A stretch of 64,000 nt of DNA. Origin: Peronospora farinosa. Its lineage: Eukaryota > Oomycota > Peronosporomycetes > Peronosporales > Peronosporaceae. The notes below the pieces were generated by a model. The model ran no database searches. It was not told the origin of the DNA and saw nothing but the letters and a program-made list of their open reading frames with translations. Both the position numbers and the translations under genes were made by a program. The stretch spans positions 62,001-126,000 of the forward strand of contig CANTFK010000705.1 in assembly GCA_947646735.1 (NCBI GenBank), read 5' to 3'. Shown here one piece after another: positions 4,480 through 42,781 of this stretch; the stretch's first letter is position 1; every line of letters starts with the position of its first letter.

Positions 4480-6600
4480 AAGCTAGTGATGACCCTCAGT
4501 CGCTGTCGGACGGAGAAAACTTACCATGGAGACGGGAAACCCCAAAGGCGGGATGCTCGTGGATGTTCTTGTGGTAAGAGATGCGCCAAGGTTCGGCATC
4601 ATCCACTACCTTCAACACCTCCAGCAGCTCCGGTTGAGAACTCCCCTGGTTGACACTTGGGTTCCAGAAAGACAGTTGACGTGTGGGGGTTACTGGCTGG
4701 GAGAAGGGGTCCAGCAGGATGTCCAAGTCACAGTGACCTGCTACCATCCCTTGCAGGACCTTCTTCAGCACTCCCATCCAAGCCTGTGTCGCCTAAGCCC
4801 GTCGTTTATTCCTGGCGTTATAAATTCGAGAATTGTACGCACTGCTGGCACGAAGAGCTATGGAAAAAGGAAGACGGTGCCGGTTCTCCCACAGACTCTG
4901 GCACGATGCGTCTACGTAGGCATCGTGGAGCTCCACCAGTCCAACAAATCAGCCATTCACGGCGAATGAGAGAGAATATTCAGACACCGTCAGCTGCTCC
5001 CATGGACGCGATCCATTAACTGCCGGAGCTGAGATTCCGTTAAGAGACCATTAGTCTCACCCAGGCGTACCCTGGATTCTTTGTACGAAGAGGGGACCGG
5101 GACATCCACGAGGCCGGAAGGGCCACGCAGGACCAGAGGTCCTTCACGCTTAATTGCGTAATCGCAAGGGGACCCACCATATAGACGGACCATGGAGCAA
5201 CGTCTTCGGTTTTAAACACAGTTGGCTGTGCGTATCCAGGAATGGATAGGCCCCAGGCGTTGGGACACAGCAAGACCCTTGGACGCTAGCACCTCGTGAT
5301 CATCAGAGCCGATACTTTCGGTATCGGACTCGGAATGACCAAAAAGCTTAATGAACAGGTCGGAATGAAGCGTATGTGTTTTTTTCCGGGTTGGAGGAAG
5401 CAGCAGGTGACGCCTGTACTTTAGAAGAAGGCTTGGACCTTGTTTTCACTGTGGATTGAAAAGAGGCTTGGACGTTGGTTTCCCAGTGGACCTCGCCGGT
5501 TTTGGAAGAGAACTCGGACTTTGGTTTCCCAGTGGGCCCCGCTTGAACTTCGTTGATTTGGGGAGATGAACGGACTTAGGTGGCTCCACGGACGTCGAAG
5601 AAGGGCCGGATGTAGTTTTACGGATAAGTCTACCACCTCTGGAGCGGGTTTCCCCACAGAAGTCACCGGGCTACCACGACGACGAGAGGCACGTGACCGA
5701 GCCATCGCCGCTAGTAGAGACTCATCGCTGCTACTGGACTTGTCTTCAGGGGAACTTGGGGCACGGGTAGTCCGACGCTTCTTCGATGTGGAAGGGGCTG
5801 GAACTTCAGCAGCAGGAGACCGAGACCTTTTAACCTTGAAGGTCCTGGGACCTTAGTCTTAGGGGGGCAGGTCTAGCCGCGGCACTCCGAGCTACGGTCA
5901 GCTGCTTCTGGAGCTGGTCCCGTTGGCAGGCGACTTGCTTCAAGAGAGCTTTATAGCGGGCCAGCTCATCTCGAAGTTGTGACACTTGAGATATTTTGGA
6001 CTGAAGGTCGGCCGTGGTGGTATCTAACTTGGCCTCCAGCTCTTCAATCTGGAATGTGAAGTTTGTCACAGTGGCCTCATACTGGCCCCTCCAGTACCGA
6101 ATCGTGGACCGAGACGCTTCAACCTCAAGGCGATAATCCTTCTGGGTGGAGAGCGCATCTCGGTACTCCGCAATAGATAGATGGTCGGTTTCGTGGTCGC
6201 AGACGAGGTTCCGAATTCAAGCCTCGATCCGGCGAAGATCAACTTGTTTTAATCGAATGACCTCGTCCACGCGGCACTGCAAGTCTTGGGACCGGCGATG
6301 CTCAGCCTGATAGGCCTGCGGGAGGGCTCTATGATTGTCAGCGAGGGTCTCTGTGACTTGGGGCCGTTCCATCGCCAGCTTGATCGCTTCCCACGCCCGG
6401 GTGACACTCTCATAATCGAAACGCTCCCCGACGAGGTCTACAGTCGGAATAACCAAGGCAGGGTCAGGTCCAGGCAGAGGAGGGGCAGACCAAGGCCCGG
6501 TTCTGGGGACTCGCCAGAGAAGGAGTTGGAAGAGGTCACTAGTGGAGAAAGGGTTGGTGAGTTGGTGAATACGGACGACCATCAAGCACATGAAAACCTA
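4480..6600 (-). pseudogene. Family B antisense ORF remnant (coiled-coil protein)
   Basis: Downstream of pol, the minus strand holds broken pieces of a protein homologous to the family A antisense ORF. From its N terminus: coiled-coil segments at 6591-6217 and 6069-5830 (leucine and charged heptads, e.g. QIEELEAKLDTTTADLQSK), a Ser/Pro/Arg-rich part (5705-5421), an IPGYAQPTVFKTEDVAPW segment (near 5255-5195, matching IPGYMQSKTFSAAEVAPW of family A) and a C-terminal GHCDLDILLDPF block (near 4745-4707, matching GHCDLDIFLDPF). Stops and frameshifts separate the pieces, so this copy is dead. No known domain was recognised. Confidence 0.75.
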
Positions 6601-8728: not shown

Positions 8729-9715
8729 ATGACAGCACTCACCAACCGTAAGTGCTCAACTGTCGAAAACCCATCGCTCACAAACGAACAAGCAATTTTT
8801 GAAGACCCAACACCCAATCCAGCAGCACTCCCAAGCACCATCAGAGGGAGTGCAACAACCAGCATCATGGCGCGACAACTCATACCTTGGCCCCTGTATG
8901 ACTTGTCCGGAGATCACGCTCCGGACTCACTGGACACGATGCGGGACTACTTCCGCCGATTTCGAAAACTGCGCGGGAAAGGTCTTGATGGAATCGAGCA
9001 TGAAGCTCTACAACGTTCTTGGTGTGCCTTCATCCAACGTTGGAATCGAATTCTCGAGGATGGTAGCAGCTTCCAATTATGGCTAGCCAATCGAGAGGAG
9101 CTTCGCGCCGATCACCTCATCGGCGCGCTACGCGAAAGAGTGTGTGAGGATGCTTGGAATGAGGACCGCCTCTGCTTCGTTCATGTCAATGAAGGATGCC
9201 AGTCTTGTGACTCGACTCCACGCCCAGCTCATGACGAATGGCGACGACACATCGCTGAATGTCCGCTCAGCGATCGCGAACGAGGTTGGATTGCAAAGTA
9301 TGAGCGAAGTCTGAGCGAACGGAGAAGCGCAGTTATTCGTGGTGCGCATCGCTGGCAGCACCACTCGCGACAGCGGAGTCAATCTCCGCGGAATCATCAG
9401 CGCAGGGCATCGACACGTTCGCCTGCCCGTCCTGCTGCGCGATTCTCGCCTCGCAATCGTGATAATATGTATTCACGACGACGTTCTCGTTCACAGCATC
9501 GTTCTCTTTCACGACATCGTTTTCGTTCGCGTCATCGTTCTCGTTCTCGACTTCGTGGATCTCCTTACCGCTTTCGTTTGTCACGAGAGCGTTCGCGTGC
9601 TCGCCCGCATTCGACTAGCCCGACTTCGTGGCTTCATACGACCGAACCACATCTGGAACGTCACGAAGGAGCGAGGAACGTGGATCTTATGTATCCTGCT
9701 CGGGAGGGAATCTAA
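8729..9715 (+). CDS. Element D antisense ORF, part 1: Arg/Ser-repeat protein (328 aa)
   Basis: Open frame on the strand opposite gag-pol, beginning 13 bp inside the 3' LTR and lying almost wholly beyond the pol stop, so it is not a shadow of pol. Residues 1-210 are mixed globular sequence with a WPLYDLSGD segment and a possible metal-binding cluster (CQSC, then HDEWRRHIAEC). Residues about 215-310 are rich in RS/SR dipeptides (RRRSRSQHRSLSRHRFRSRH), as in SR proteins that bind RNA or splicing factors. The same frame resumes at 9779 after stops at 9713-9715 and near 9764. These could be nonsense mutations or a small intron. The function is unknown; the SR comparison rests on composition only. 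Confidence 0.6.
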   Translation: MTALTNRKCSTVENPSLTNEQAIFEDPTPNPAALPSTIRGSATTSIMARQLIPWPLYDLSGDHAPDSLDTMRDYFRRFRKLRGKGLDGIEHEALQRSWCAFIQRWNRILEDGSSFQLWLANREELRADHLIGALRERVCEDAWNEDRLCFVHVNEGCQSCDSTPRPAHDEWRRHIAECPLSDRERGWIAKYERSLSERRSAVIRGAHRWQHHSRQRSQSPRNHQRRASTRSPARPAARFSPRNRDNMYSRRRSRSQHRSLSRHRFRSRHRSRSRLRGSPYRFRLSRERSRARPHSTSPTSWLHTTEPHLERHEGARNVDLMYPAREGI

Positions 9716-18875: not shown

Positions 18876-19952
18876 TGTGGTGAAGTGCTAATTTTGTGAT
18901 ATGGAGGTCCCGGAATCCAGTTGGATTCAGAGTATAGGCCGTGGGTCAGGGACAGGGGACCAGAGAGACAGGGGCCTCAAAGGAGAGCGACCGTTGGTGG
19001 AGGACAATCCGCAGGATTCGCCGAAGAAAATCAGTATCAGGGTACCGGTTAACCGGTACCAAAGGGAGTTGATCATGGCCGCTCATTGATCGACCTGGCC
19101 CCTCGTTGGTAGACCCGGGTCCCTCGTCGGTCGACCTGGGTCCCTCGTTGGTCGACCCGGTCCCTCATTGGTAGACCTGGGTCCCTCATTGGTAGATCTG
19201 GTCCCTCGTTGGTCGACCCAGTCCCTCGTTGGTCGACCCGGTCCCTCATCGGTTCAGCGACTCCGGACCAGTTAATACAAGGATCAGACCAGTCGACGCA
19301 AGGAATCAGAGCTTCAGGCAAGGATAGAGTAAAGGAGTTAAAAGGATAGGACTATATTAAATACTACTCAATTTGCGATCTACGTGGCACGACTCCGTCA
19401 CCCAAGAAGGACTTGTTCTAAGTTATTCACTGTTCCGGGAAGGGATATATTTTGGCCCCCCGTCGAAGACAGTTGTGTAGCGAAGTTCAAGGGCGAATAG
19501 AGCTCCAGGATATATTTGGCCTGTGAGCTCGTTCGAGTAGCAACACCCCCCAAGACCCGCTATCGGAAGCGGTCTCCCTCACCTCAAGGTCCGGGAGCAA
19601 CGTAAAGGTCAGGTGGTTAATACCCCTGAAACAGAAGGAAAAGGCCAGGGACGACAAGCGCCCTGAAGAATTTGGCTCTAAGTCCACTCTCGACAAGGTC
19701 GATCGAGTGGCCACCTACCGGCCCACCGAGTGAAGCATATCCACTCGAGGCCCCCCCAGGTCTACCTCCCTCAAGGCAGACATCTACATCGTCACCAAGT
19801 CCTCCGAAGAGTGCAACCCGCCAGCCGACGGGTACACAAGGTGAGAGAAGGTTCATACGCGGCATCGGGGTACCCCCTCCGACAGTCGGCAGTCCGGCAC
19901 AGTGAGTGGTTTGGGGTCTCATCATACAATTTTGAGAACCCACTCCACCACA
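18876..19952 (+). repeat. LTR 1, family A, subtype 1 (5' LTR of E1)
   Basis: 1077 bp from TGTGGTGAAGTG to CACTCCACCACA; the ends are inverted repeats over 12 bp with one mismatch. The 5' part reads GCTAATTTTGTGATATGGAG (subtype 1). It contains a minisatellite at about 19085-19250. Confidence 0.92.
19085..19255. repeat. Minisatellite in LTR 1 (unit about 19-20 bp)
   Basis: About nine copies of a unit near GGTCCCTCATTGGTCGACC with variants GTAGACC and CTCGTCGG. The same unit recurs with different copy number in LTRs 2-5 and explains most of their length differences. Confidence 0.9.
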
Positions 19953-20327
19953 ATGGTGCGCGTGCCCGGATCTTCGGAAGACGCGGGATTTCACCGCGAG
20001 TCCCAAGACGATAACGATGTTCATGTCAAGAAGAAGCACAAGACCGAAGAGTCACTGGAAGACCGATCGCCAGTGACTCAAGAAGAAACAAACAAAGGAT
20101 CGAAGGACCGACCGGGCCTTGGGAGGGGCCCGGTCAACATGGTCGAGGTTGAATTCATTGAAGAAAAACCTAAATACCCTCCCTATGTCCTCGTTGAGGA
20201 CACCTTGGGTCATGACGCCTATCATGATCCAGAGGACCATCAGCCGACGGTGAAAACCGAGAGGCTAAGGTCCCCAAAAAACAACAAAACAAGATCGCGC
20301 AATCCAAGCCGACGAAGTTCCGGATGA
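19953..20327 (+). CDS. E1 leader ORF (about 124 aa) starting within the PBS
   Basis: The ATG at 19953 uses the A after the LTR and the first bases of the PBS, so the first residues (MVRVPGSSED) are written by the primer-binding site. The product is acidic and hydrophilic, with a KKKHKTEESLEDRSPVTQEE stretch and EVEFIEEKPKYPPYVLVED. Its stop TGA overlaps the gag ATG (ATGA, 20324-20327). In E2 the homologous frame has one extra base and runs about 70 nt into gag in another frame. The role is unknown; it may be a short gag N-terminal domain joined by frameshifting. Confidence 0.5.
   Translation: MVRVPGSSEDAGFHRESQDDNDVHVKKKHKTEESLEDRSPVTQEETNKGSKDRPGLGRGPVNMVEVEFIEEKPKYPPYVLVEDTLGHDAYHDPEDHQPTVKTERLRSPKNNKTRSRNPSRRSSG
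19954..19971 (+). other. Primer-binding site, E1
   Basis: TGGTGCGCGTGCCCGGAT, one base after the LTR. It is the same class as the family B PBS with substitutions. It lies inside the ATG-containing start of the leader ORF. Confidence 0.65.
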
Positions 20328-22478
20328 AGGCACCCGGAAACACCAAGTCGATAGGCCCCGAGAGGGAAGGACTGGCGTCAAGGACAGACGCTGATGTCAC
20401 GAGGGCCTACCACCAGCGCAAGCTGAACGCGTTCCTGGAGAGCGACCCCGTCGCGAAGATCCTGGAGATCCGACAGCTGGGTCAACTCACTGGGCCGGTG
20501 TCGACCCTGCCACGGCTGCACTCCGTCACGGACGCAATCACAGCGCTGGTCACCATGCTTCGTGAAGCGAACATGGTCGCAGGTCGGTTCGACCCGGACG
20601 ACCTGCTATCCCTGGGGTTCGACAGAATCACAAAAACGTTAGAGCACATGCACAAGCGTCTGTCGATCCTGGTGGGTACCACACCAGCAACGGAACACCC
20701 ACCTCTGGTGACACCTACACACATGCGGTCCAAGGACAGCCAGATGACGCTTCAAGACATCACGGTGGGTCCCCACATGTACGGAGCCGCCGGCCACCCA
20801 GGGGCGAATCAAGACCCATCTCAACACCGGATGCCAAGCGGCCAGAGGGAAGCAGCACCGTGGTCCCCCGGATCGTCCTCAACTGGGTCGGTCACTAGGA
20901 TGCCCCTAAGCCCTACTGGAGCGGCGCTGCTCCAGGCCCGAGCGCGCAGCGCGAAGCAGGAGCCAAGTGGTCTTGAAACGGTGACGCGTGGCATTAATGA
21001 AAATCATTCCGATTTTCAGCCAATGGAAAATCAGCAAGAGAAAAAATTGGAATTTGCTCTGCCCCGTGACGAAGATGCTGGGGGAGAAGGACCTACCTAC
21101 CCGGTAGGCGATCTGCAGACCCTCTTCGACGCGGCGATGACAAGATTTTTGAATGAACGCCAAGTACCGAGGGCACACCTTAACGGGAATGCAGTAGGAG
21201 GAAGACCAGAGGCGAAAAGGACGACCGCTCACCACGACCAGCATCCAGGCATACAAATGCCAAGAGGCCACACGATGACCGACGTCGATATGGAATCCGT
21301 CGGTTCCTGTGAGTTCGACCCTGACAACATGGATTTGAGGGGACCTCAGTCGATGATGGCGAACGCAGCGCTGGTACAGATGCCAAATATGGTCCCTCGC
21401 ATCAAACTATCGGCGACCTCGGACCTTAAAGAATTTCATGGAAGAGACCAAGACGAAGACAGAGCGCGCAGCTGGGTATCGACGGTCAAGACAGCATTCA
21501 TAAAAGACCAAGCACCAGATGATGAACGATGTCTCGTTTTTGGAGGATTGCTGACTGGACCGGCACAGAATTGGTACCGTCAACTGGGTCGCTCATTCCG
21601 AGGAAACTGGAAGGACTTAATCCAAGAGTTCATGATTCGTTTCTGTGGTACGGGGGTACCGGTCGCCCGCCAGTAAGTACTACCATGCGAAGAAAAGGTC
21701 GGAAGAGACCCCGCTGGATTATCTGTACCGCCTGAATGTGCTTGGACTCAGGGCGAAGATGAAGATTAAGGATGGGTCGCCCAAGATTCAGAAGGATCAC
21801 GTCGATCACTACATTTTGACGGTGGACGACCCAGAGCTAGCAGACAAGTTGACTATGCTGCGTCTGGCGGACGTGGAAGAATTGGAGGAAGTATTGACAG
21901 CATGTCAGCGGACGAAGGCAAGACGAGGCAAGATGCTGTTTGGATCAAACAAGTTTCGTCAGAAGGCACCGGCACTACCCGAGAGGCCGAGAGATCTAAA
22001 TCGCCGCTCCATACATGCAGTACGGACGCCCCTGGAAGACTCGAGCTCTGAAGATTCCAGTCCAGACTCCTCGGAGAATGAGGGAGATCTAAGACGAGTC
22101 TACCTTATGGAGAAGGAAGCGGGGAGGGATCCAAGTGTGAGGTTCTCAAAGAATCTACCGACTAGGGAGGCCGACCAACATCGCCAGGCAGTAGACCAGC
22201 GACCCGGCCCATCATCAGCGACCCCAAACACGAGATGTGCATATTGCGGGTCCAAGAAACATGGAGATCTGAATTGCTGGAAAAGATTGACCTGCGACCG
22301 CTGTGGAAGGAAGGGTCACCCGTCTGACCGCTGCCTGTTTGTATGCCGGGGTTGTGGAGAGATTCACGAGATTGGGAAGTGCCAGATGGAGGAGTTCTAT
22401 AATTTGTTCCGTCAATGGTACAACCCAGCCAAGCATGCAGGGATGTTCCCGGAGAAACTCGAGAAGATGGCAAATTAG
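20324..22478 (+). pseudogene. E1 gag (frameshifted by a 4-bp duplication)
   Basis: Gag begins MKAPGNTKSIGPE at 20324. Residues 1-360 are disordered N-terminal and matrix-like sequence. The capsid-like part (IKLSATSDLKEFHGRDQDED, TGPAQNWYRQLG, LIQEFMIRFCGTG) ends at 21676, where AGTA is duplicated (21672-21679) and shifts the frame. It continues in the frame ending at 22478 with LDYLYRLNVLGLRAKMK. Three zinc knuckles follow: CAYCGSKKHGDLNC, CDRCGRKGHPSDRC and CRGCGEIHEIGKC. E2 lacks the duplication and shows the uninterrupted frame. Gag packages the element RNA. Confidence 0.88.
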
Positions 22479-23049: not shown

Positions 23050-24125
23050 TGTGGTGGAGTGGGTTCTCAAAATTGTATGATGAGACCCCAAACCACTCAC
23101 TGTGCCGGACTGCCGACTATCGGAGGGGGTACCCCGATGCCGCGTATGAACCTTCTCTCACCTTGTGTACCCGTCGGCTGGCGGGTTGAACTCTTCGGAG
23201 GACTTGGTGACGATGTAGATGTCTGCCTTGAGGGAGGTAGACCTGGGGGGGCCTCGAGTGGATATGCTTCACTCGGTGGGCCGGTAGGTGGCCACTCGAT
23301 CGACCTTGTCGAGAGTGGACTTAGAGCCAAATTCTTCAGGGCGCTTGTCGTCCCTGGCCTTTTCCTTCTGTTTCAGGGGTATTAACCACCTGACCTTTAC
23401 GTTGCTCCCGGACCTTGAGGTGAGGGAGACCGCTTCCGATAGCGGGTCTTGGGGGGTGTTGCTACTCGAACGAGCTCACAGGCCAAATATATCCTGGAGC
23501 TCTATTCGCCCTTGAACTTCGCTACGCAAATGTCTTCGACGGGGGGCAAAATATATCCCTTCCCGGAACAGTGAATAACTTAGAACAAGTCCTTCTTGGG
23601 TGACGGAGTCGTGCCACGTAGATCGCAAATTGAGTAGTATTTAATATAGTCCTATCCTTTTAACTCCTTTACTCTATCCTTGCCTGAAGCTCTGATTCCT
23701 TGCGTCGACTGGTCTGATCCTTGTATTAACTGGTCCGGAGTCGCTGAACCGATGAGGGACCGGGTCGACCAACGAGGGACTGGGTCGACCGACGAGGGAC
23801 CAGGTCTACCAATGAGGGACCCAGGTCTACCAATGAGGGACCGGGTCGACCGATGAGGGACCCAGGTCGACCGACGAGGGACCCGGGTCTACCAACGAGG
23901 GGCCAGATCGATCAATGAGCGGCCATGATCAACTCCCTTTGGTACCGGTTCACCGGTACCCTGATACTGATTTTCTTCGGCGAATCCTGCGGATTGTCCT
24001 CCACCAACGGTCGCTCTCCTTTGAGGCCCCTGTCTCTCTGGTCCCCTGTCCCTGACCCACGGCCTATACTCTGAATCCAACTGGAGTCCGGGACCTCCAT
24101 ATCACAAAATTAGCACTTCACCACA
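23050..24125 (-). repeat. LTR 2, family A, subtype 1 (3' LTR of E2)
   Basis: On minus: TGTGGTGAAGTGCTAATTTT to CACTCCACCACA, 1076 bp. It is nearly identical to LTR 1, with the minisatellite at about 23752-23915 in reverse. The PPT (GCAGGGGGCGGC on minus) directly precedes it at 24126-24137. Confidence 0.92.
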
Positions 24126-24141
24126 GCCGCCCCCTGCACTT

Positions 24142-24165
24142 GCTCAACCGTACAACGGATTGAGC
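24142..24165 (-). other. Hairpin beside the PPT of E2
   Basis: Inverted repeat with a stem of about 10 bp (arms GCTCAATCCGT and ACGGTTGAGC on minus, 3-nt loop, one bulge). The equivalent in E1 is 41602-41625. It is conserved in both copies although single bases differ. Confidence 0.6.
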
Positions 24166-24349
24166 AAGCGTATGTCTTCACTTCCTTCGTCACGTAGGTC
24201 CTTCATTGTCCCCTTTGTTCTCCATTCTCCTATACCCTTAACTCTTGGAAGTTCAAGGCCGCCCCGCAGGCGACCCAAGTCTTCCAACGAGGGGCTGGGC
24301 CGACCATTGAGGGAATCGGTCCACCCTCCAAGAAACTTGCTACCGCCGG

Positions 24350-24838
24350 CTAGTTTTCATGGCTTTGCATTACTTCGAAGCGGTTATGGCTTGTGTTCTT
24401 GCGCTCGAAGTCCCGGAGTAAGGCTCCGCAATTCAGATCCACTTCGTCCACCCACGAGGGGTCAGGGTGTCCCTTCCATTGCACGAGGAATTCTCGTTGT
24501 TGCCTCCCATACCGAGTCTTCTTGCCTGTACGACTCTCTAAAATTTCTTCGACTTCATACTCGCCTTCTTCCAATTCCCGCACCCAGCTGTCTTCTGGTA
24601 GCAGACATTCGTCGAAGTCGACTCGATCTGTTCCATCCACTTTCAGCTCGCTGTTCGGTCGATCGGGGAACTCTCTGACGGGCTTGAGCTTGGAGATGTG
24701 TACGATTGGGAATAGTCTGTATTCTGTACCTCGTAACTCCAGACGTACTGCATGATCTCCGACTAACTCCTGGACTCGGAACGGTCCGTGCCATAGGTGG
24801 GCCAATTTTTTGGCATACCCCTCTTTCACTCGGTCCAA
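24350..24838 (-). pseudogene. E2 integrase C terminus: GPF module and chromodomain
   Basis: It continues pol after a nonsense codon (TAG where E1 has CAG, near 24860). It contains YLDRVKEGYAKKLAHLWHG, HGPFRVQELVGDHAVRLEL, HISKLKPV, and the chromodomain YEVEEILESRTGKKTRYG...FLVQWKGHPDPSWVDEVDLN. It ends at 24350 with a stop. The chromodomain may steer integration to particular chromatin. Confidence 0.9.
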
Positions 24839-24862
24839 GTATAGCCATACCCGGGCCCCTGG

Positions 24863-25924: not shown

Positions 25925-25948
25925 CCAGCTCTCCTCTTCTTGCGCATC

Positions 25949-29083: not shown

Positions 29084-30445
29084 TGTGGTGAAGTGGTTTC
29101 CTAAATTTTGAAGGACCCAGGTTCTAGTTGGATTGAAGGGACAAAGGGCCGTGGACTAGGGAGAAGGGACCACGCACTCGAGAGAAGGGACCGGATATAA
29201 TGGGAACCTCGGAGTGAAGCGACCGTTGGCTGAAAATTTGAAAGACAAACAAAGGAGAGGTCATTACCAGGGTACTGTTTAGCCGGTACCGAAGGGATTC
29301 GACCATGCCCCTCATTGGTCGACCCGGTCCCTCATTGGTCGGATCAGGTCCCTCATCGGTCGACCTCGGTCCCTCATCGGTCGACCTGGGTCCCTCATCG
29401 GTCGACCCGGTCCCTCATTGGTAGACCTGGGTCCCTCATCGGTAGACCCGGTACCTCGTCGGTAGACCTGGGTCCCTCATTGGTCGAACAGGTTCCTCAT
29501 CGATAGACCTGGGTCCCTCATTGGTCAACCAGGTCCCTCATCGGTAGACCTGGGTCCCTCATTGGTCGATCAGGTCCCTCATTGGGGTAGACCTGGGTCC
29601 CTCATTGGTCGACCTCGACCCCTCGGGGTTCAGCCACTCCGTACCAGTTAATACAAGGATCAGACCAGTCGACGCAAGGAATCAGAGCTTCAGGCAAGGA
29701 TAGAGTAAAGGAGGTAAAAGGATAGGACTATATTAAATACTACTCAATTTGCGATCTACTTGGCAAGTCTTCGTCGCGCTGTAAAGGAACTCTAGTCTGG
29801 CCACACCCCTGTTCCGAAAAAGGGATATTTTTCCCCCCCCCCCTAAAAAAAGAGGGGGGGGCCCCAAAAAAAAAGCGAACCCCCACGTGGCACGACTCCG
29901 TCACCCAAGAAGAACTTGCTCTAAGCTACTCACTGTTCCGGGAAGGGATGAATTTTGGCCCCCCGTCGAAGACAGTTGTGTAGCGAAGTTCAAGTGCGAA
30001 TAGAGCTCTAGGATATATTTGGCCTGTGAGCTCGTTCGAGTAGCAACACCCCCCAAGACCCGCTATCGGAAGCGGTCTCCCTCACCTCAAGGTCGGGGAG
30101 CAACGTAAAGGTCAGGTGGTTAATACCCCTGAACAGAAGGAAAAGGCCAGGGACGACAAGTGCCCCTGAAGAATTTGGCTCTAAGTCCACTCTCGACAAG
30201 GTCGATCGAGTGGCCACCTACCGGCCCACCGAGTGAAGCATATCCCCCCCAGGTCTACCTGCCTCAAGGCAGACATCTACATCTTCACCAAGTCCTCCGA
30301 AGAGTGCAACCCGCCAGCCGACGGGTACACAAGGTGAGAGAAGGTTCATACGCGGCATCGGGGTACCCCCTCCGACAGTCGGCAGTCCGGCACAGTGAGT
30401 GGTTTGGGGTCTCATCATACAATTTTGAGAACCCACTCCACCACA
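29084..30445 (+). repeat. LTR 3, family A subtype 2, solo LTR inserted in E2
   Basis: 1362 bp, TGTGGTGAAGTGGTTTCC to CACTCCACCACA, antisense to E2. It is flanked by a 4-bp duplication ACAC (29080-29083 and 30446-30449) and splits the E2 protease between GNLV and YIFKV, just after the active site. No internal retroelement sequence accompanies it, so it is a solo LTR. The minisatellite is at about 29308-29628. A corrupted homopolymer-rich stretch lies at 29757-29885. Confidence 0.88.
29308..29630. repeat. Minisatellite in LTR 3 (about 16-17 units)
   Basis: Tandem units near GGTCCCTCATTGGTCGACC, the largest array among the family A LTRs together with LTR 4. Variants alternate between GTCGACC and GTAGACC. 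Confidence 0.9.
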
Positions 30446-33400: not shown

Positions 33401-33453
33401 TGGGACTCGCGGTGAAATCCCGCGTCTTCCGAAGATCCGGGCACGCGCACCAT
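30446..33453 (-). pseudogene. E2 leader ORF, gag and protease start
   Basis: The minus strand: PBS next to LTR 4, leader frame 33453-33010, gag from the ATG at 33080. Gag runs as 33080-32427 and 32437-30926; a frame change near 32430 separates them. The capsid region is intact here, without the AGTA duplication of E1 gag. Of the three zinc knuckles the first reads FAYCGSKKHGDLNC, so its first Cys is lost (Phe). The protease FDTGAEISILD is in the frame 30989-30446, which ends at GNLV where LTR 3 was inserted. Confidence 0.88.
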
Positions 33454-34697
33454 TGTGGTGGAGTGGGTTCTCAAAATTGTATGATGAGACCCCAAACCAC
33501 TCACTGTGCCGGACTGCCGACTGTCGGAGGGGGTACCCCGATGCCGCGTATGAACCTTCTCTCACCTTGTGTACCCGTCGGCTGGCGGGTTGCACTCTTC
33601 GGAGGACTTGGTGACGATGTAGATGTCTGCCTTGAGGGAGGTAGACCTGGGGGGCCTCGAGTGGATATGCTTCACTTGGTGGGCCGGTAGGTGGCCACTC
33701 GATCGACCTTGTCGAGAGTGGACTTAGAGCCAAATTCTTCAGGGGCACTTGTCGTCCCTGGCCTTTTCCTTCTGTTTCAGGGGTATTAACCACCTGACCT
33801 TTACGTTGCTCCCCGACCTTGAGGTGAGGGAGACCGCTTCCGATAGCGGGTCTTGGGGGGGGGGTGTTGCTACTCGAACGAGCTCACAGGCCAAATATAT
33901 CCTGGAGCTCTATTCGCACTTGAACTTCGCTACACAACTGTCTTCGACGGGGGGCCAAAATATATCCCTTCCCGGAACAGTGAGTAACTTAGAACAAGTC
34001 CTTCTTGGGTGACGGAGTCGTGCCACGTAGATCGCAAATTGAGTAGTATTTAATATAGTCCTATCCTTTTACCTCCTTTACTCTATCCTTGCCTGAAGCT
34101 CTGATTCCTTGCGTCGACTGGTCTGATCCTTGTATTAACTGGTCAGGAGTGGCTAAACCCCGAGGGGCCGAGGTCGACCAATGAGGGACCTGATCGACCA
34201 ATGAGGGACCTGATCGACCAATGAGGGACCCAGGTCTACCGATGAGGGACCTGGTTGACCAATGAGGGACCCAGGTCTATCGATGAGGAACCTGTTCGAC
34301 CAATGAGGGACCCAGGTCTACCGACGAGGTACCGGGTCTACCGATGAGGGACCCAGGTCTACCAATGAGGGACCGGGTCGACCAATGAGGGACCCAGGTC
34401 GACCGATGAGGGACCGGGTCGACCGATGAGGGACCTGTCCGACCAATGATGGACCGGGTCGACCAATGAGGGGCATGGTCGAATCCCTTCGGTACCGGCT
34501 AAACAGTACCCTGGTAATGACCTCTCCTTTGTTTGTCTTTCAAATTTTCAGCCAACGGTCGCTTCACTCCGAGGTTCCCATTATATCCGGTCCCTTCTCT
34601 CGAGTGCGTGGTCCCTTCTCCCTAGTCCACGGCCCTTTGTCCCTTCAATCCAACTAGAACCTGGGTCCTTCAAAATTTAGGAAACCACTTCACCACA
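33454..34697 (-). repeat. LTR 4, family A subtype 2 (5' LTR of E2)
   Basis: 1244 bp; on minus TGTGGTGAAGTGGTTTCC to CACTCCACCACA. The inner end is followed by A and the PBS (TGGTGCGCG). The outer end abuts GTGTACATC of the + pol block, the same junction that LTR 3 makes with the minus pol block. It contains a minisatellite of about 16 units at 34165-34475. Confidence 0.9.
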
Positions 34698-36626
34698 GTG
34701 TACATCTTTAAGGTGTGGGTAGGCCCTATGGTAGGCCAAGATGCAATTTTGGGGATGGACTTCATGGTCCCAGCCGGTATCCGGTTAGACTTGGCCGACG
34801 GAACTCTTTGCCTCCCCGATGAGGTCAGGGTACAGTTGACTGGGCGAAGGACACTGTATAATACGCGAGTATCGGATGTGAAATTGGGTCGGTATGTACA
34901 GATATCCGTTGGAGGATGTACGGAAGTGCCTCTCAAAAGGTCGACCTCAGAACAGTGGAAATTGTGGGTCACGAGAGGCGAACGATGGGTGACCACCATG
35001 ATACAAGGGATAGGACCTCGACCGATTTTGAAGATAACCAATGTCAGCCCTCGCCCCTTAACATTGCATGAAGATACCAAGGTAGGTATGTGGTTGACTA
35101 GGGAGCAAGTTCCAAGAACGCAAGGGTTTGTCTCGGTAGGCTCTCGAAGATATGCGGAATGGCTAAATCTGGCTTATGAATCTACCACTGACCAAGTCGA
35201 CCATCAGGTCGACCTAACGGAAGAGGAAGAGGGGCCACTAGTGGAGAGACCAGAGTATAAGACTCCGTCACACATCTTACAGCGACCGCAGGCCCCAACC
35301 CCAATGATGAATATAACACACCAACCGGTACCCGACAGTGAAGAACAACTGTGCGAAGAGAGGGTGAATTGGCAGGAGGGGACCGCCCAAAAGCGGAGTG
35401 TATTTGAAGAAGACCTACATACAGTGACCACCACCAATGAGAAGGAAGTCAAACCGGTAGACTTGTTACAGGCAGATGACCAGGTGTGTTCTTTCGAGAG
35501 TGGAGAACTTTGGGCCGAGGACATAAGGCCAGGGTGGGCGGTCGTACCGGAAGTGGACCCCTCATCCGAAGGCATTGCGTTAGAAGATATACAGATTCCA
35601 GATCCAGATGGGAACACTCCCGAAGAGGTGGACCGTTTGCGACAAATAATATGGAAGAAACGACATCTGCTGATGGGCAAAGGTAACGCCTTACCCCCGG
35701 CCGCCCGAGGAGCGATATGCGATATCGATGTAGGGAACGCAAGACCGATCGCGCAACGCGTACGAAAGGTGGCCCCTCAATTCAGAGAGAAGCTAGCCGA
35801 CCTGATCAAGGGACTGTTATCAGCAAAGATCATTCAGCCTTCCACCTCGCCATGGGCCAGCCCAATTGTAATTATCGTGAAGAAGAATGGGGTCGATATT
35901 CGATTGTGTATCGACTATCGGTTGGTGAATGATCTTACCCAGCTCATGGTATACCCGATGCCGTTGATTAACGAATTACTGGAAGACTTGGATGGAGCTT
36001 TATGGTACTGTTCTCTTGATATGGCGAGTGGTTTTTGGGTCGTCAGTATGACCGAAAGGGCGAGATTAATCTCAGCTTTCGTTACTCCACTGGGATTATT
36101 TGAATGGCTTCGGATGCCTTTTGGGCTTAAGAATGCGCCTCAGATATATCAAAGGTTGTTGGATAATGCGTTATATGTATTCTTGCGGATTTCGCCAGGG
36201 GCTGCCACAGAGGAAACAGAGGATTTGTTCGCAACAGGGGAACCAGATGCAAACTCGGGCCTCTCTGTATTGGGTCGACGATCATACATTGACGATATAC
36301 TTGTTCCGGCCGAATCGTGGGACGTATTATGCCAGAAAGTGGAGCGGCTGCTAGACGTGTGTGACTATTGGAATTTGTCGGTCAGTGCCGTCAAGAGTAC
36401 GTGGGGATGTCGGAAGGTCGAGTATCTTGGACATCGAGTTTCCAAAGGGGGACTAGAGGCCCACCCAAAAGATCTTCAGTCTTTGGTCGACCTACCTCTA
36501 CCGACAACACTGAAGGCTATGCAGTCCTTTCTAGGAAGCCTAAATTACTACAGCAGGTACATCGAAGATTATGCCATATACGCGTCGATCCTTTACGAAC
36601 TGAGAGAGGTGGATTTTCACGCTTGA
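34698..36626 (+). pseudogene. E1-type pol: protease end, reverse transcriptase
   Basis: 642 codons, nearly identical to E2 29083-27150: spacer, RT with SLDMASGFW, MPFGLKNAPQIYQ and YIDDILVPAESW. It ends at a TGA at 36624-36626 where E2 has TGG (Trp, in FHAWRCKF). The first base is the LTR 4 junction. Confidence 0.92.
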
Positions 36627-39430
36627 AGGTGCAAATTTAAGGCTAACGAGGAAGTGGCGGCCCAGGAAGACGACGAAGAAAAATGGTCGAAGGTACAAGT
36701 AGCGTTTGCCATGCTCAAGAACAAGATTGCTACGGCGCCCATCCTACGACATTTCGACCCGGCTAGAGAGGCGGTCATCATTGTCTACGCAAGTGATTGG
36801 GCTATCTCGGCGTCGTTGGTGCAAAATTACGACGGCATGTATATGCCGGTAATGTTTACGAGCCGAACCCTCAAGTCAAACGAGGTGAACTATAGCACAG
36901 TGGAAAAGGAAGTGTTGGCGTTGTTACGGATATTGGAAACTTGCTTCACGATGTTGGTCACCCGACCTCTCAAAGTTCTGACGAGGCATTCTACACTAGC
37001 CTGGCTAGTAAAGTCTTCGGGGTTGCAAGGTCGCTTAGGAAACTGGGCCGCTCTCTTGTCCTAGTGAACTTTGGAGATTGTGAAATGCAAGAAAGGCGAA
37101 GACCAGGTACTGGGGGCGTTAGCTGCCAGCATTACGCCTCGAGAGAGTGTGGACTCAATTCTGTCGTCAATTGCTCCCAAGAAGCAATCCAGGCAAGTGG
37201 CCGACCTACCGACGCCCACAGTGAAACCAAACGAAGAACTGTATGTGATGAGTTTCGATGGGTCGGCGCGGGTGAAGCAAGGAGGAGGCGCCTGCAGCGC
37301 TATTGTGTGGAGACTCCCTGCATGGACTATAGTCGCCGCTGCATCGAATATCTCGACAAGTCTACAGTGAATGAGGCTGAATATGAGGGCATGTTACTGG
37401 GTTTTGACCTGTTGGAGCCAATGGAGCGACGGCGTTTGATTATTTGTGGAGACTCCAATCTGGTTATAAGACAGATGCGTGGAGAGATTGAATGCAAAGC
37501 TTCAGGTTTATCCCCGTTGCGGGCCCAGGCGCTGAGTAAACTTCAGTCGTGGCCCAACCAGGCAGTCCTACATGTGAAACGAGACTGGAATCAGAGCGCA
37601 GACCAGTTGGCTAGTACAGCTTTACATCAGCAGCAAGGGGTCGAGTCGATACCAAGAGGAGAGTGGTCAGGTCTAGAAACAACCAATCGGCTGCCAGAGG
37701 TGCTGGTCCCTAGAGACCGAGGTCAGTCGGTCAAGGTATCTGCGGTGACGAGATCACGGCTCCCCGTCAAAATATCGGGAGAGGTTATGCAAGAAGATGT
37801 GGTACAACAACTCCGGATGGATAGAATACGTGATGCGCAAGAAGAGGAGAGCTGGGTGTGCGAGTTGAAGGCATATTTGCAAGGAGACTGGAAAGACTTG
37901 TCGGTGGAAGCGGCCAGAAACTGCAGCAAAATGTCGGAGGATTACGAGATAAGTGAAGAGGGACTGATGGTGTACTGCCCCGGCCAGAGAATCAAGGGAG
38001 ACGACCGAGACATAACTGCCAGATTGGTGATACCTGAGAGTCTCCAAGCCGACGTCCTCCATCATTATCATACGAGTTTGGAAGGCGGCCATCAGGAGAT
38101 CGGGCGTACTTATCATCGGATCCGACGATATTGCCATTGGAGGGGTCTGTTCCGGAGTGTTCAGAAATATGTGGGTCAGTGCATAGATTGTGAGACTGGT
38201 AAAGGGAGACCCACTTTACAAGGGAGGTCTCCGGGGAATGTTGAAGCGACGTACCCCTTCCAAATTATCGCGATGGACCACATACCATCTCTCCCCAAGT
38301 CACATAAAGGAAACACGGAACTACTGATTTGGATCGACCTGTTCACAGGTTATGTGATGGCTAAAGCGAGTGCGTCACGGACAGCCCAGACAGTGGCTGA
38401 GGGATATGAAGAATGCGTTTTCCGCCGTTTTGGTGCCAGTGAGACGATCCGTCACGATCGGGAACCGGGGTTTATGTCGGACTTCTTCCGAGCGTTCAGT
38501 CGTATGGTAGGTCAACGTCAGAGAGCGACCATGGCCTACCGACCTCAAGCGAACGGCACTGCGGAGAGAATGGTCCAGACTCTAACAAGATCGCTCAAGA
38601 TGTACGTAGCCGACGTGGGACAGCGAGACTGGGATGAATACGCGGAACGATTAACGTTCGCGTTAAATACGGCTCAAGACAGAGTGCGTGAGGAAACACC
38701 GTTCTATCTGGTACATGGATGGGATGCTAGGACCACTCTTGAGACTATGTTACCGGTGGTGAACACTCGACGTCGAGAATCAGGACCTCGGAGATGGAGA
38801 TATCGGATTCAGAGTCACTATCAGCGAGCAAGAGACCAAGTCAACGAGAATTTACGGGCGGCTAGTCAGGCTCGGGTGCAAGCACAAAATGAAGGGGTAG
38901 TCGGCCACGAAATTCAGCCAGGGACCCGGGTATGGCTATACTTGGACCGAGTGAAGGAGGGGTATGCCAAAAAATTGGCCCACCTATGGCACGGACCGTT
39001 CCGAGTCCAGGAGTTAGTCGGAGATCATGCGGTACGTCTGGAGTTACGAGGTACAGAATACAGACTATTCCCAATCGTACACATCTCCAAGCTCAAGCCC
39101 GTCAGAGAGTTCCCCGATCGACCGAACAGCGAGCTGAAAGTGGATGGAACAGATCGAGTCGACTTCGATGAATGTCTGCTACCAGAAGACAGCTGGGTGC
39201 GGGAATTGGAAGAGGGCGAGTATGAAGTCGAAGAAATTTTAGAGAGTCGTACAGGCAAGAAGACTCGGTATGGGAGGCAACAACGAGAATTCCTCGTGCA
39301 ATGGAAGGGACACTCTGACCCCTCGTGGGTGGACGAAGGGGATCTGAATTGCGGAGCCTTACTCCGGGACTTCGAGCGCAAGAACACAAGCCATAACCGC
39401 TTCGAAGTAATGCAAAGCCATGAAAACTAG
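36627..39430 (+). pseudogene. E1-type pol: tether RNase H, archaeal-type RNase H, integrase, chromodomain
   Basis: After the stop at 36626 the same frame continues through the degenerate RNase H (VYASDWAIS, LTRHSTLAW) to stops at 37063-37069 (TAG, TGA; E2 reads through). The second RNase H begins SFDGSARVKQ, loses one A near 37349 (frameshift), then continues in the long frame to 39430: NEAEYEGM, CGDSNLV, WNQSADQL, the integrase zinc and DDE core, HGPFRV module and chromodomain ending at 39430. The lesions differ from those in E2. Confidence 0.92.
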
Positions 39431-39620
39431 CCGGCGGTAGCAAGTTTCGTGGAGGGTGGACCGATTCCCTCAATGGTCGGCCCAGCCCCTCGTTGGAAGA
39501 CTTGGGTCGCCTGCGGGGCGGCCTTGAATTTCCAAGAGTTAAGGGTATAGGAGAATGGAGAACAAAGGACGGCGATTACCAAGATCAATCAGAACAGAAG
39601 AAGGTTCATGTCCAAGGGAA
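39431..39620. other. Spacer between pol and antisense ORF in E1
   Basis: No coding signal. It contains two minisatellite-like units (CCCTCAATGGTCGGCCC, CCCCTCGTTGGAAG) and the left breakpoint (ACAAAGG, 39562-39568) of the deletion seen in E2. Confidence 0.6.
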
Positions 39621-39623
39621 GAC

Positions 39624-41598
39624 CTAAACGGATGGCACAAACTTGCCTTTGAGGCGTGGAACTAAAGCGCCAGGATGGGGCACAGAAGACAAACGATACT
39701 GGGTGAGCCACGGCCACGCGGAATCCGACACCCGAAGGGCCTCAAGCAGGTCGACCGGGTCCGACCCCTCTTCACGACCAGGGAACCAATAAACCACACG
39801 GCGGGTTCGAGGAAGATAACGGAAGAAGGGATCCAGGAAGATGTCGAGATCGCAGTGGCCCCTGCTCATCCCAATGAAGATAAGGTCGACCACCTCCCGC
39901 CAAGCTCGAGTTGCCCGACTCCGACGCTTCTTCCGCGCGTTGTAGTAGGACGCGAGGAAAGAGTTCGCTCGCGCTTGGTCCTTGGAGATCCACAAGCAGT
40001 GGGTCGCCTCCCAAAGAGCTTGACTATGCTCTTCGTCAAACTGGATGTAGGCCGCTGCCAACTGGGCGAACCAGCCAACAGGTCGGAAGGACACGGGCTG
40101 CATGGGAACACGAGCTTCCACCCAAGGTTCCGCCGCTAGCAATCTCTGGATCATTGGAGGGTTCATCAACGACCTCTTCCATTTGGGGGGCCGGTCGAGG
40201 GTTTCCGTCCGGAGGGCCAAACCAACCCCAAGGTAGATCCAGCTGGTCGACCAAGTCTGTGGAAGACATTGTAACAATGCACCACGAATTGACCAGGTCG
40301 ACCGGCCAAGGTGCCACTTCCGCAGCGGAAAAGGTCTTCGACTGCATGTATCCGGGGATCATGGCGTCTCTGGGAAGCAGGCTGGAGTCGGCCAGAAGGG
40401 GCGAAGTGTTGTCCGCGACAGGAGGCGCACTCTTGTTTTTCTCCGCAGACGACTCGGTCTCCGAGTCCGATGTCCCGAACATCGCCCGTTCCAACGAGAG
40501 GCCGGTAGCCGAGGTGGTCCTCAATGGAGGAGTGGACGTCGACGGAAGACGTACAGGGTTCGCGCTGGCAGGGCGCCGACTAGCAGAACGAGACTTGGCC
40601 AGAGCCGCCCGAAGGGTCTCGCTGTCGTCGCTGAGGTCGTCGTCCGAAGACTCAAGCACGACAGGGGAACGACCACTAGAGACCGCCGACGGTGGTATCG
40701 TAGAGGCGTCGGGCTTCGGAAGCTTGGAGGTTTTGGCGGGTACCCGGGGTGACGGCCGCCGGGACCGTTTACCAAGAGCTTTCGCCGGCCGCGAAGGGGA
40801 ACATGCGGCCGGGGGCGAAGCTGCCGAAGGAGTAGCTGGTCCTAGAGGTGGCCCGTCAGAGAAGTCGACATGGTCGAGCTCTGCGGCGAGAAGCGAGTAC
40901 CGGCTTCGGATGTGGTCGACCTTCCATCGCAGACGGTCCACCAGTGCAGTCTCGCGCTGGAGAGCTTCGCGAAGTTGGGCCACCAGCCGGGACTTGTCGC
41001 GCAGTGCCTCCTCCAACCGCTCACAACGAGTGGCCAACAAGGCGGCCGAAGGGGGAAGGACACCTAGCCGACCCTCGCAGTCTTCGATGCGGCGGGAATG
41101 GGCGTCCGCGAGAGCTTGCAATTCCCGCAGAGCTGCCCGTACGTTAACGGGTACGGAAGACGGACGGTCAACCATGGGGGTCGGCGTGACAGGAGCATCT
41201 GCTGTCTCGACAGGAGGCAAAGCGGTGGAAACAGGAGAGCTGTGAACGACAACAATTTCAGCAGCACTCAACTGCGAACACACCGGCCCGGGAAGGTCGG
41301 CCAAGGACGCCTCTCTACATGGAGAGGCAACCGAAGGCGCGACGGCGATTGAAGTCGGCTCCTCAGATGGTGGGTCAGCGGACGGTGGGTCAGCAGATGA
41401 GGGGTTAGAACCAGGGGTGATTGAAGGCGCTGGGGCGACCGAGGTCGGCTCTTCAGTCGGTGGATCAGCGGACGGTGGGTCAGCAGACGGTGGATCAGAA
41501 CCAGGGGAAGACATGGCTGGACAGACACGAGTTAGAGGTGGAGGAGCTACAAAGGGGACAATGAAGGACCTACGTGACGAAGGAAGTGAAGACATGCG
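39624..41598 (-). CDS. Family A antisense ORF: Pro/Ser-rich coiled-coil protein (frameshifted)
   Basis: The frame 41853-40036 stays open for 605 codons. The likely start inside the element is the Met at 41598 (MSSLPSSRRS), since upstream codons lie in the LTR. The N-terminal part is a Pro/Ser/Ala/Asp repeat (units like SADPPSEEPTSIA). A coiled coil follows (CERLEEALRDKSRLVAQLRE ... ETALVDRLRWKVDH), then an acidic, Ser-rich region and IPGYMQSKTFSAAEVAPW. Near 40200 the reading passes to the frame 40277-39624, which holds FAQLAAAYIQFDEEHSQALW, a basic NARKKRRSRATRAW stretch and GHCDLDIFLDPF. The last blocks match family B (4480-5260) at the protein level. It lies outside pol, so it is not a pol shadow. 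No known domain was recognised. Confidence 0.7.
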
Positions 41599-41601
41599 CG
41601 T

Positions 41602-41641
41602 GCTCAATCCGTTGCACGGTTGAGCAAGTGCAGGGGGCGGC
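41602..41641 (+). other. Hairpin and polypurine tract before 3' LTR of E1
   Basis: 41602-41625 forms a hairpin (arms GCTCAATCCGT and ACGGTTGAGC). The purine-rich GCAGGGGGCGGC (41630-41641) directly precedes the LTR and is the expected plus-strand primer. Confidence 0.65.
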
Positions 41642-42781
41642 TGTGGTGAAGTGCTAATTTTGTGATATGAAGGTCCCGGACTCCAGTTGGATTCAGAGTA
41701 TAGGCCGTGGGTCAGGGACAGGGGACCAGAGAGACAGGGGCCTCGAAGGGGAGCGACCGTTGGTGGAGGACAATCCGCAGGATCCGCCGAAGAAAAATCA
41801 GTATCATGGTACCGGTTAACCGGTACCAAAGGGAGTTGATCATGGCCGCTCATTGATCGACCTGGCCCCTCGTTGGTAGACCCGGGTCCCTCATTGGTCG
41901 ACCCGGTCCCTCATCGGTCGACCTGGGTCCCTCATTGGTAGACCTGGGTCCCTCATTGGTAGACCCGGTCCCTCGTTGGTCGACCCGGTCCCTCATCGGT
42001 CGACCTCGGCCCCTCTTTGGTCGACCCGGTCCCTCATTGGTAGACCTGGGTCCCTCATCAGTCGACCTCGACCCCTCGGGGTTCAGCCACTCCGTACCAG
42101 TTAATACAAGGATCAGACTAGTCGACGCAAGGAATCAGAGCTTCAGGCAAGGATAGAGTAAAGGAGGTAAAAGGATAGGACTATATTAAATACTACTCAA
42201 TTTGCGATCTACGTGGCACGACTCCGTCACCCAAGAAGGACTTGTTCTAAGTTACTCACTGTTCCGGGAAGGGATATATTTTGGCCCCCCGTCGAAGACA
42301 GTTGTGTAGCGAAGTTCAAGGGCGAATAGAGCTCCAGGATATATTTGGCCTGTGAGCTCGTTCAAGTAGCAACACCCCCCAAGACCCGCTATCGGAAGCG
42401 GTCTCCCTCACCTCAAGGTCCGGGAGCAACGTAAAGGTCAGGTGGTTAATACCCCTGAAACAGAAGGAAAAGGCCAGGGACGACAAGCGCCCCTGAAGAA
42501 TTTGGCTCTAAGTCCACTCTCGACAAGGTCGATCGAGTGGCCACCTACCGGCCCACCAAGTGAAGCATATCCACTCGAGGCCCCCCAGGTCTACCTCCCT
42601 CAAGGCAGACATCTACATCGTCACCAAGTCCTCCGAAGAGTGCAACCCGCCAGCCGACGGGTACACAAGGTGAGAGAAGGTTCATACGCGGCATCGGGGT
42701 ACCCCCTCCGACAGTCGGCAGTCCGGCACAGTGAGTGGTTTGGGGTCTCATCATACAATTTTGAGAACCCACTCCACCACA
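41642..42781 (+). repeat. LTR 5, family A subtype 1 (3' LTR of E1)
   Basis: 1140 bp, TGTGGTGAAGTGCTAATTTT to CACTCCACCACA. It is nearly identical to LTR 1 except for minisatellite length (array about 41857-42080). It is followed by the target repeat ATGT. Confidence 0.93.

What the first reader, a model, noticed from the sequence alone, without database searches (positions are those of the whole stretch)
39624..41598. Antisense protein gene conserved between Gypsy subfamilies A and B
Opposite to gag-pol and wholly downstream of it, E1 carries an ORF for a Pro/Ser-rich coiled-coil protein. Family B has a decayed homologue at 4480-6600. Shared blocks in the same order (IPGY-Q...EVAPW; YNAR-KRR-ATxAW; GHCDLDI-LDPF) show protein-level conservation despite much divergence, so the antisense frame was probably selected. 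Antisense ORFs are known in some plant Tat-type Gypsy elements (e.g. Grande, Retand); I know of no described oomycete counterpart.
Basis: partly seen in the sequence, partly recalled or inferred. Interest (0 to 1): 0.88.

Follow-up and report, generated by a model that had tools for sequence, protein, structure and literature searches.

The report
Backward gene in oomycete Gypsy retrotransposons
A group of jumping genes in a downy-mildew genome carries a third gene that reads backwards relative to its other genes and has been kept by natural selection; a similar arrangement is known in plant jumping genes, but no match to a known protein family was found.

Summary
The finding holds and is larger than reported. 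E1 (LTRs 18876-19952 and 41642-42781, 97.8% identical) is a Ty3/Gypsy element with two RNase-H-like domains and a chromodomain, the 'Chronos' layout. Between pol and the 3' LTR lies an antisense gene: frameshifted in this copy, free of stops and frameshifts in 6 of 30 fetched copies. The protein (P/S-rich start, coiled coil, S/R linker, W-rich C-terminal domain) occurs in five families compared (A-E, 34-59% identity in the C domain) and in Phytophthora and Peronospora. Of 164 aORF-domain hits, 85 have a listed pol end nearby, all 85 tail-to-tail; 79 have none listed. The antisense frame is under purifying selection (A1-A2 dN/dS 0.33; C domain 0.22; pol end 0.24), and shuffle tests exclude the overlapping sense frame as the cause. 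Constraint is weak in singletons and strong in lineage-defining changes, so selection acts on transposing lineages. 28 of 72 family-A pol ends have no listed aORF; whether these were mobilised without it is unresolved. A second, unrelated antisense ORF sits in another Gypsy lineage. Searches of open-licence papers found no oomycete counterpart. Function (nuclear/RNP accessory factor) is inferred; transcription is untested.

The parts
18876..19952 (+). E1 5' LTR (TGTGGTG...CACCACA), preceded by ATGT, followed by a TGG... primer-binding-site-like sequence at 19954
20324..22478 (+). E1 gag-like ORFs
   Evidence: the E2 counterpart hits Retrotrans_gag below the cut-off
34698..36626 (+). E1 pol, reverse transcriptase part
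   Evidence: RVT_1 1.1e-20
36941..39430 (+). E1 pol end: RVT_3 (second RNase-H-like domain), integrase H2C2, rve and SH3 (both just under cut-off), chromodomain
39624..41595 (-). antisense gene (aORF); in-frame ATGs at 41595 and 41514, stop at 39624-39626; broken by one frameshift near 40.2 kb in this copy
   Evidence: open relatives
40866..41140 (-). coiled-coil segment of the antisense protein
   Evidence: boundaries read by eye
39627..40360 (-). conserved W-rich C-terminal domain (IPGY..APW, basic RK[KQ]RR[SA][RK], GHCDLDI.LDP)
   Evidence: start read by eye
41642..42781 (+). E1 3' LTR, preceded by a polypurine tract at about 41630-41641, followed by ATGT
23050..24380 (-). 3' end of E2 (opposite strand): lacks the stretch that corresponds to E1 39562-41548, i.e. 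the antisense gene; junction at a 7-nt repeat
4517..6507 (-). decayed family B antisense gene, tail-to-tail with the family B integrase ORFs at 3085-4238 (+)
8729..9715 (+). unrelated SR-rich antisense ORF of another Gypsy lineage ('G'), overlapping tail-to-tail with its pol (9687-13487, -)

Best explanation
Chronos-type Gypsy elements of this oomycete carry a third, antisense protein gene between pol and the 3' LTR. SHOWN: position inside the LTRs and convergent with pol; conservation of the antisense reading frame across families and species; purifying selection at the level of transposing lineages; existence of copies that lack the gene. INFERRED: an antisense transcript from a promoter in or just inside the 3' LTR is translated into a 630-930 aa protein that self-associates through its coiled coil and uses its W-rich/basic C-terminal domain to bind element nucleic acid or a nuclear partner. 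It works as an accessory factor (expression, nuclear entry or escape from silencing), possibly in trans, as proposed for the antisense protein of maize Grande.
For: Selection: A1 vs A2 dN/dS 0.334 over the gene, 0.224 in the C domain, 0.243 for the pol end in the same copies; the four frames that do not share third positions give 1.12-1.31. Between families, dS is finite in 6 of 21 pairs, with dN/dS 0.16-0.35; only A-A2 (0.16) and C-C30 (0.19) have dS below 1. N/S relative to a simple neutral expectation: singletons 0.76, shared 0.43, fixed 0.18; pol 0.60, 0.34, 0 N of 4; control frame +1: 1.05, 1.14, 3.70. Frame: keeping the antisense protein predicts the similarity in the wobble-sharing sense frame (z -0.20, -0.63, -0.69 in the 3 pairs run), whereas keeping the sense peptide does not predict the antisense similarity (z 5.1-9.7 in 21 of 21 pairs). 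Layout: 85 of 164 aORF hits have a listed pol end within 1.5 kb, 85 of 85 convergent, gaps 188-354 bp. Open copies: 6 of 30 family A loci without stop or frameshift over 656 codons; 15 family C loci with stop-free frames of 905-973 aa. Other species. Basic motif in 14 of 19 proteins; 18 of 19 have no 19-residue hydropathy peak over 1.6.
Against: No transcript data. A search for an oomycete Inr-like promoter gave nothing above chance (shuffle p 0.8 and 0.9). The model of the C-terminal ORF is poor (mean pLDDT 50) and the full-length job never finished, so no fold supports nucleic-acid binding. The basic motif is absent in 5 of 19. The wobble-sharing sense frame is also below 1 (0.417; 0.93/0.54/0.22 for singletons/shared/fixed), as expected from shared third positions. 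In A vs B one other sense frame reached z 2.36. The fixed A1-A2 class rests on 30 sites, almost all in the N part. 28 of 72 A-type pol ends have no listed aORF, so the gene may be dispensable, regulatory or even inhibitory.
Confidence: 0.55

Rival explanations
1. The conserved thing is a sense-strand ORF (444 aa at 39911-41245, +) or sense RNA, and the antisense frame is a shadow of it.
For: The opposite frame that shares third positions has dN/dS 0.417, and a 397-codon stretch of it is open in many close A1 copies.
Against: It has 3-6 stops in the four A2 copies, whose antisense frame has 0-1. Its similarity between families equals what antisense conservation alone yields in the 3 pairs run, and the reverse is not true in 21 of 21 pairs. 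The relatives found in other species are proteins of the antisense frame.
Confidence: 0.02
2. The antisense region works mainly as RNA: a convergent transcript that makes dsRNA and limits copy number, with the protein secondary.
For: Convergent layout with pol in all 85 pairs seen; the review PMC7264820 names this option for plant elements (passages).
Against: Codon-level selection; linker tandem repeats whose periods are multiples of three (18/36/108 bp in L069; 30/45/75/105/150 bp in L070).
Confidence: 0.1
3. The antisense gene is an anti-silencing or host-factor-hijacking protein (a subtype of the best explanation) rather than a replication cofactor.
For: Composition and basic motif; the C domain diverges faster (36-39% identity between A, B and C) than the pol end (about 66% between A and C).
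Against: No direct data.
Confidence: 0.2
4. An env-like gene, a captured host gene, or a separate mobile element inserted backwards.
For: Env-like genes of LTR elements sit between pol and 3' LTR.
Against: Antisense in 85 of 85 near pairs; hydropathy maxima 0.72-1.86, one of 19 above 1.6; Pfam matches shown are mostly coiled-coil types, the one strong hit being a GRF zinc finger in a single gene model; no homology to the element's gag. A cellular relative was not searched for separately.
Confidence: 0.08

Closest known systems
Chronos Ty3/Gypsy elements of oomycetes (Ustyantsev et al. 2017, PMC5348765; seen: abstract, section 5, search passages)
   Same: Two RNase-H domains and a chromodomain at the end of pol; the host is a Peronosporaceae by its proteins.
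   Different: 'antisense' occurs 0 times in the held main text, nor in the group's 2023 paper PMC10508981 (passages); supplements were not seen. RT phylogeny was not run here.
Plant Tat/Retand antisense ORFs with TRP28 (Vicient 2025, PMC11963269; seen: abstract, passages)
   Same: Antisense gene between pol and 3' LTR, tandem repeats in that region, a second RNase H in Tat pol (per PMC5348765), proposed DNA-related role.
   Different: No PF04195 found; chromodomain present; unrelated host. The resemblance looks convergent.
Maize Grande GENE23 (Gomez-Orte 2013; known only through the passages of PMC7264820)
   Same: Antisense gene in the 3' internal region.
   Different: There a transcript, an own promoter and nuclear location are reported; none shown here.
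Boty of Botrytis (Zhao 2011; known only through the passages of PMC7264820)
   Same: Antisense ORF outside plants.
   Different: Sequence not compared here.
HTLV-1 HBZ (through passages of PMC11963269 and PMC7264820)
   Same: Antisense protein of an LTR retroelement.
   Different: No bZIP family among the Pfam matches shown (one weak homeobox-zipper hit, E 0.023, in one relative); promoter unknown here.

Membership tests
Chronos (oomycete Ty3/Gypsy) | original RNase H followed by a second RNase-H domain in pol | tested here: met
   RT_RNaseH 2.3e-20 and RVT_3 8.6e-12 in E2 pol; RVT_3 2.4e-9 in E1 pol; both in L069
Chronos (oomycete Ty3/Gypsy) | the second RNase H is of the archaeal-like type | not tested
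   only the Pfam match RVT_3 was seen; no tree or active-site comparison
Chronos (oomycete Ty3/Gypsy) | chromodomain at the end of pol after integrase | tested here: met
   PF00385 2.5e-6 in E1 pol, 4.4e-9 in L070; 1.4e-4, below cut-off, in L069
Chronos (oomycete Ty3/Gypsy) | place in the RT tree | not tested
   no named Chronos reference sequences were fetched
Chronos (oomycete Ty3/Gypsy) | host in Peronosporales/Pythiales | tested here: met
Retand-type TRP28 antisense gene | antisense between pol and 3' LTR | tested here: met
Retand-type TRP28 antisense gene | Transposase_28 domain PF04195 | tested here: not met
   0 matches in the genome at E <= 10, without a positive control; absent from the full lists and from the 25 of 54 families shown
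env-like third ORF | sense orientation and transmembrane segment | tested here: not met
   85 of 85 near pairs antisense; hydropathy over 1.6 in 1 of 19
functional antisense accessory gene | own antisense transcript | not testable with these tools
   no RNA data on hand

The most novel reading that the evidence does not exclude
Antisense 'third genes' arose independently at least twice in oomycete Gypsy elements (the Chronos aORF and the unrelated G protein) and again in plant Tat elements, so retroelements repeatedly evolve a protein gene on the other strand. In Chronos it makes a trans-acting factor that aORF-less copies exploit. (Probability lowered from 0.4, because E2 is not flanked by a target-site duplication and it is open whether aORF-less copies were mobilised as such.)
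Probability: 0.35. Interest if true: 0.8.

Novelty: new variant of a known kind. Interest (0 to 1): 0.62.

Why it matters
Oomycete Chronos and plant Tat elements were already described as having converged on a second RNase H (PMC5348765). A selected antisense gene in the same place adds a further parallel and suggests a shared need in the life cycle of these elements. It gives a defined, conserved protein family and a set of copies with and without the gene for asking what antisense genes of LTR elements do, a question still open in plants (PMC7264820, PMC11963269). It also tells annotators that these 'hypothetical proteins' of Phytophthora and Peronospora are probably transposon genes.

Tried and rejected
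Sense-ORF explanation: rejected. Homology to plant TRP28: none found. Homology to gag or to the G antisense protein: none. Solved relatives: the best 60 of 118 matches all lie at profile positions 26-435 of 767, the coiled-coil part. Oomycete Inr promoter (consensus recalled, not from a call): not above chance. Structure of the 217-aa C-terminal ORF: too poor to use, so no fold search was run; the full-length job (P0002) was unfinished at the last poll. The idea that E2 is a plain nested insertion that moved without the gene: not supported, because its flanks CTTG and GTGT do not match. Other copies with the E2 junction: none in the 81 loci held, but these were fetched by aORF matches, so they could hardly show it.

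Full report
WHAT IS THERE. E1 is one LTR element: LTRs 18876-19952 and 41642-42781, both TGTGGTG...CACCACA, 97.8% identical (1054 of 1078 aligned bases), flanked by ATGT on both sides, with a polypurine tract directly before the 3' LTR. Its middle holds opposite-strand element material, E2. E1 pol has RVT_1, RVT_3 (a second RNase-H-like domain), integrase H2C2 and a chromodomain over cut-off, rve and SH3 just under; E2 pol also shows the original RT_RNaseH. This is the architecture named Chronos by Ustyantsev et al. 2017 (PMC5348765; abstract, section 5 and search passages seen). Whether the second RNase H is archaeal-like and where the RT falls in a tree were not tested.

Between the pol stop (39430) and the 3' LTR lies a minus-strand gene of about 1.9-2.0 kb. 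In this copy it is split over two frames; L041, a natural open copy, matches both parts. In-frame ATGs are at 41595 and 41514; the annotated Peronospora effusa protein P0016 (629 aa) begins at the position of the second (comparison by eye).

HOW COMMON. A DNA search of the genome listed 44 matches (40 of 163 candidates scored). Protein searches with the two parts gave 153 and 99 matches (capped). Of 30 loci fetched with the N-terminal part (L039-L068, the window copy L039 included), 6 show neither stop nor frameshift over the 656 codons compared with L041, itself one of the 6. 15 of 30 have a stop-to-stop frame of at least 600 aa, but this count includes frameshifted copies such as the window's own. 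Far relatives at 36-44% identity have frames of up to 973 aa. One of them, family C (L069), has its antisense gene on + at 1106-3910 and pol on - ending at 4094. Family C has 15 listed loci with stop-free frames of 905-973 aa, 13 of them at 100% (rounded) in the C domain. C-domain identities among families A, B, C, D (L080) and E (L081) are 34-59%; C with its relative C30 (L079) 74%; A with A2 90%.

LAYOUT. I merged the aORF hits that reach about the 3' end (164) and the pol-end hits that do so (180), typed by hand; rows whose match stops short of the end were left out. 85 of 164 aORF hits have a listed pol end within 1.5 kb downstream on the other strand (gaps 188-354 bp); 0 have one on the same strand; 79 have none listed; 95 of 180 pol ends have no listed aORF. 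The lists are capped at about 150 rows, so 'none listed' is not absence: L070 is in that group yet has its pol about 264 bp away.

SELECTION. NG86 on natural copies, 22 A1 against 4 A2 (4 of 30, L053, L061, L063 and L064, were left out as recombinant, truncated or badly aligned): antisense frame dN/dS 0.334 (N part 0.375, C domain 0.224), pol end 0.243. Other frames 1.12-1.31, except the opposite frame that shares third positions, 0.417. Within A1 the value is 0.479 (pol 0.362), within A2 0.573 (pol 0.351), as expected when copies decay after insertion. Split by frequency: singletons 222 N / 120 S (0.76 of neutral), shared 62/60 (0.43), fixed A1-A2 9/21 (0.18; 29 of these 30 sites are in the N part); pol 65/40, 10/11, 0/4. 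The opposite frame gives 0.93, 0.54, 0.22 and frame +1 gives 1.05, 1.14, 3.70. Selection therefore acts mainly on the transposing lineages. Between families dS is saturated in 15 of 21 pairs; the other 6 give 0.16-0.35. C-C30 (0.19) looks recombinant.

WHICH STRAND. In A-C (374 codons), A-B (165) and C-B (169), shuffling synonymous codons while keeping the antisense protein reproduces the similarity in the wobble-sharing sense frame (z -0.20, -0.63, -0.69); another sense frame reached z 2.36 in A-B. In the reverse test, keeping the opposite-frame peptide leaves the antisense similarity unexplained in 21 of 21 family pairs (z 5.1-9.7). The sense ORF carries 3-6 stops in the four A2 copies.

THE PROTEIN. 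P/S-rich start, coiled coil, S/R-rich linker with tandem repeats whose periods are multiples of three, and a C-terminal domain with invariant P, W, S, F and H positions in 16 aligned proteins. A basic RK[KQ]RR[SA][RK] motif is present in 14 of 19 proteins; 18 of 19 lack a hydropathy peak over 1.6 (the threshold is recalled). Of 54 Pfam families matched at E <= 1 by 16 relatives, the 25 shown are mostly coiled-coil types; a GRF zinc finger in one gene model is the one strong hit and GAGA_bind (5e-5) in one relative the next. The PDB matches shown (60 of 118) lie in the coiled-coil part. The structure model of the C-terminal ORF is poor (pLDDT 50). Relatives: 14 hits with the C-family domain and 8 with a Phytophthora one (the query among them; 6 shared), named from Phytophthora fragariaefolia, capsici, rubi, megakarya, fragariae and Peronospora matthiolae, effusa, plus unnamed contigs. 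Whether these lie antisense to pol in those species was not seen.

COPIES WITHOUT IT. Of 72 family-A-type pol ends examined (4 more, lower in the list, were left out), 44 have an aORF piece downstream, all 44 on the opposite strand; 28 have none listed, including pol ends in frames of 1761 aa (C28) and 1396 aa (C183) at 99% (rows of the A group and 11 rows were entered). E2 in this window is one: it lacks the counterpart of E1 39562-41548, with a junction at a 7-nt repeat. E2 has no matching flanks (CTTG/GTGT), so it is not shown that it moved without the gene; it may have lost it later.

A SECOND ANTISENSE PROTEIN. The Gypsy element at about 8.4-16 kb has an SR-rich antisense ORF (8729-9715, +) overlapping the pol tail. 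140 matches in the genome; 16 pairs picked by eye, not a full count, all overlap tail-to-tail by 23 bases. Over 9 copies, 4 of them with stops in the part printed, its first 200 codons give dN/dS 0.47, but the wobble-sharing sense frame gives 0.52, so the strand is not settled there; in the last part this frame gives 0.76 and two other frames 0.47 and 0.56. 18 database relatives, the named ones from Phytophthora and Peronospora. It is not homologous to the Chronos protein by profile comparison.

LITERATURE. Searches (0 papers; 46 papers, 15 listed; 5; 1) showed no title or abstract about antisense ORFs of oomycete elements; apart from the papers named here I saw listings only. PMC3522703 and PMC3804510, on Phytophthora small RNAs, were not opened. 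'antisense' occurs 0 times in the main texts of PMC5348765 and PMC10508981, and in PMC12477816 (Ectocarpus, passages) the word concerned small RNAs. Only open-licence PMC papers are held. For plants, PMC11963269 (abstract, passages) and PMC7264820 (passages) describe antisense ORFs of unknown role; the latter also mentions Boty of Botrytis.

VERDICT. A real, selected antisense gene in a known oomycete clade, not described for it in the papers searched; same kind as plant antisense ORFs, different protein. Mechanism inferred, transcription untested.

Noticed in passing
window 8729-9715 (+), pol 9687-13487 (-): Another Gypsy lineage, no chromodomain seen in its pol end, has an unrelated SR-rich antisense ORF with 18 database relatives, the named ones in Phytophthora and Peronospora.
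   Followed up: partly
window 17865-18419 (-), pol ORF 17560-18051 (+): A third antisense ORF overlapping a pol end; 150 matches listed in the genome, many in 443-aa open frames. Relation to pol in other copies not tested.
   Followed up: no
window 23050-34697 and 29084-30445: E2 (LTRs 23050-24125 and 33454-34697, opposite strand) is not flanked by a matching duplication (CTTG/GTGT). Inside E2 an LTR at 29084-30445, opposite to E2's own strand, has ACAC on both sides, and the right border of E2 in E1 (34697/34698) falls at the same pol site: an older inverted LTR shared by both, then recombination, rather than a plain nested insertion (read by eye).
   Followed up: partly
P0006 (586 aa, 1.9 kb contig): RT/RNase H and the aORF C domain fused in one same-strand ORF, suggesting an inverted rearrangement or an assembly chimera.
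   Followed up: no
L079 (C30:8195-8953) against L069: The last part of the C domain is identical in protein to family C while the first part is diverged: possible recombination between families.
   Followed up: no
P0015: A UniRef name calls this Phytophthora fragariae relative 'Autophagy-related protein 16'; probably a label drawn from its coiled coil.
   Followed up: no
window 19051-19259, 29301-29591, 41797-42087: Minisatellite of about 20-41 bp periodicity inside the LTRs, length-variable between copies.
   Followed up: no
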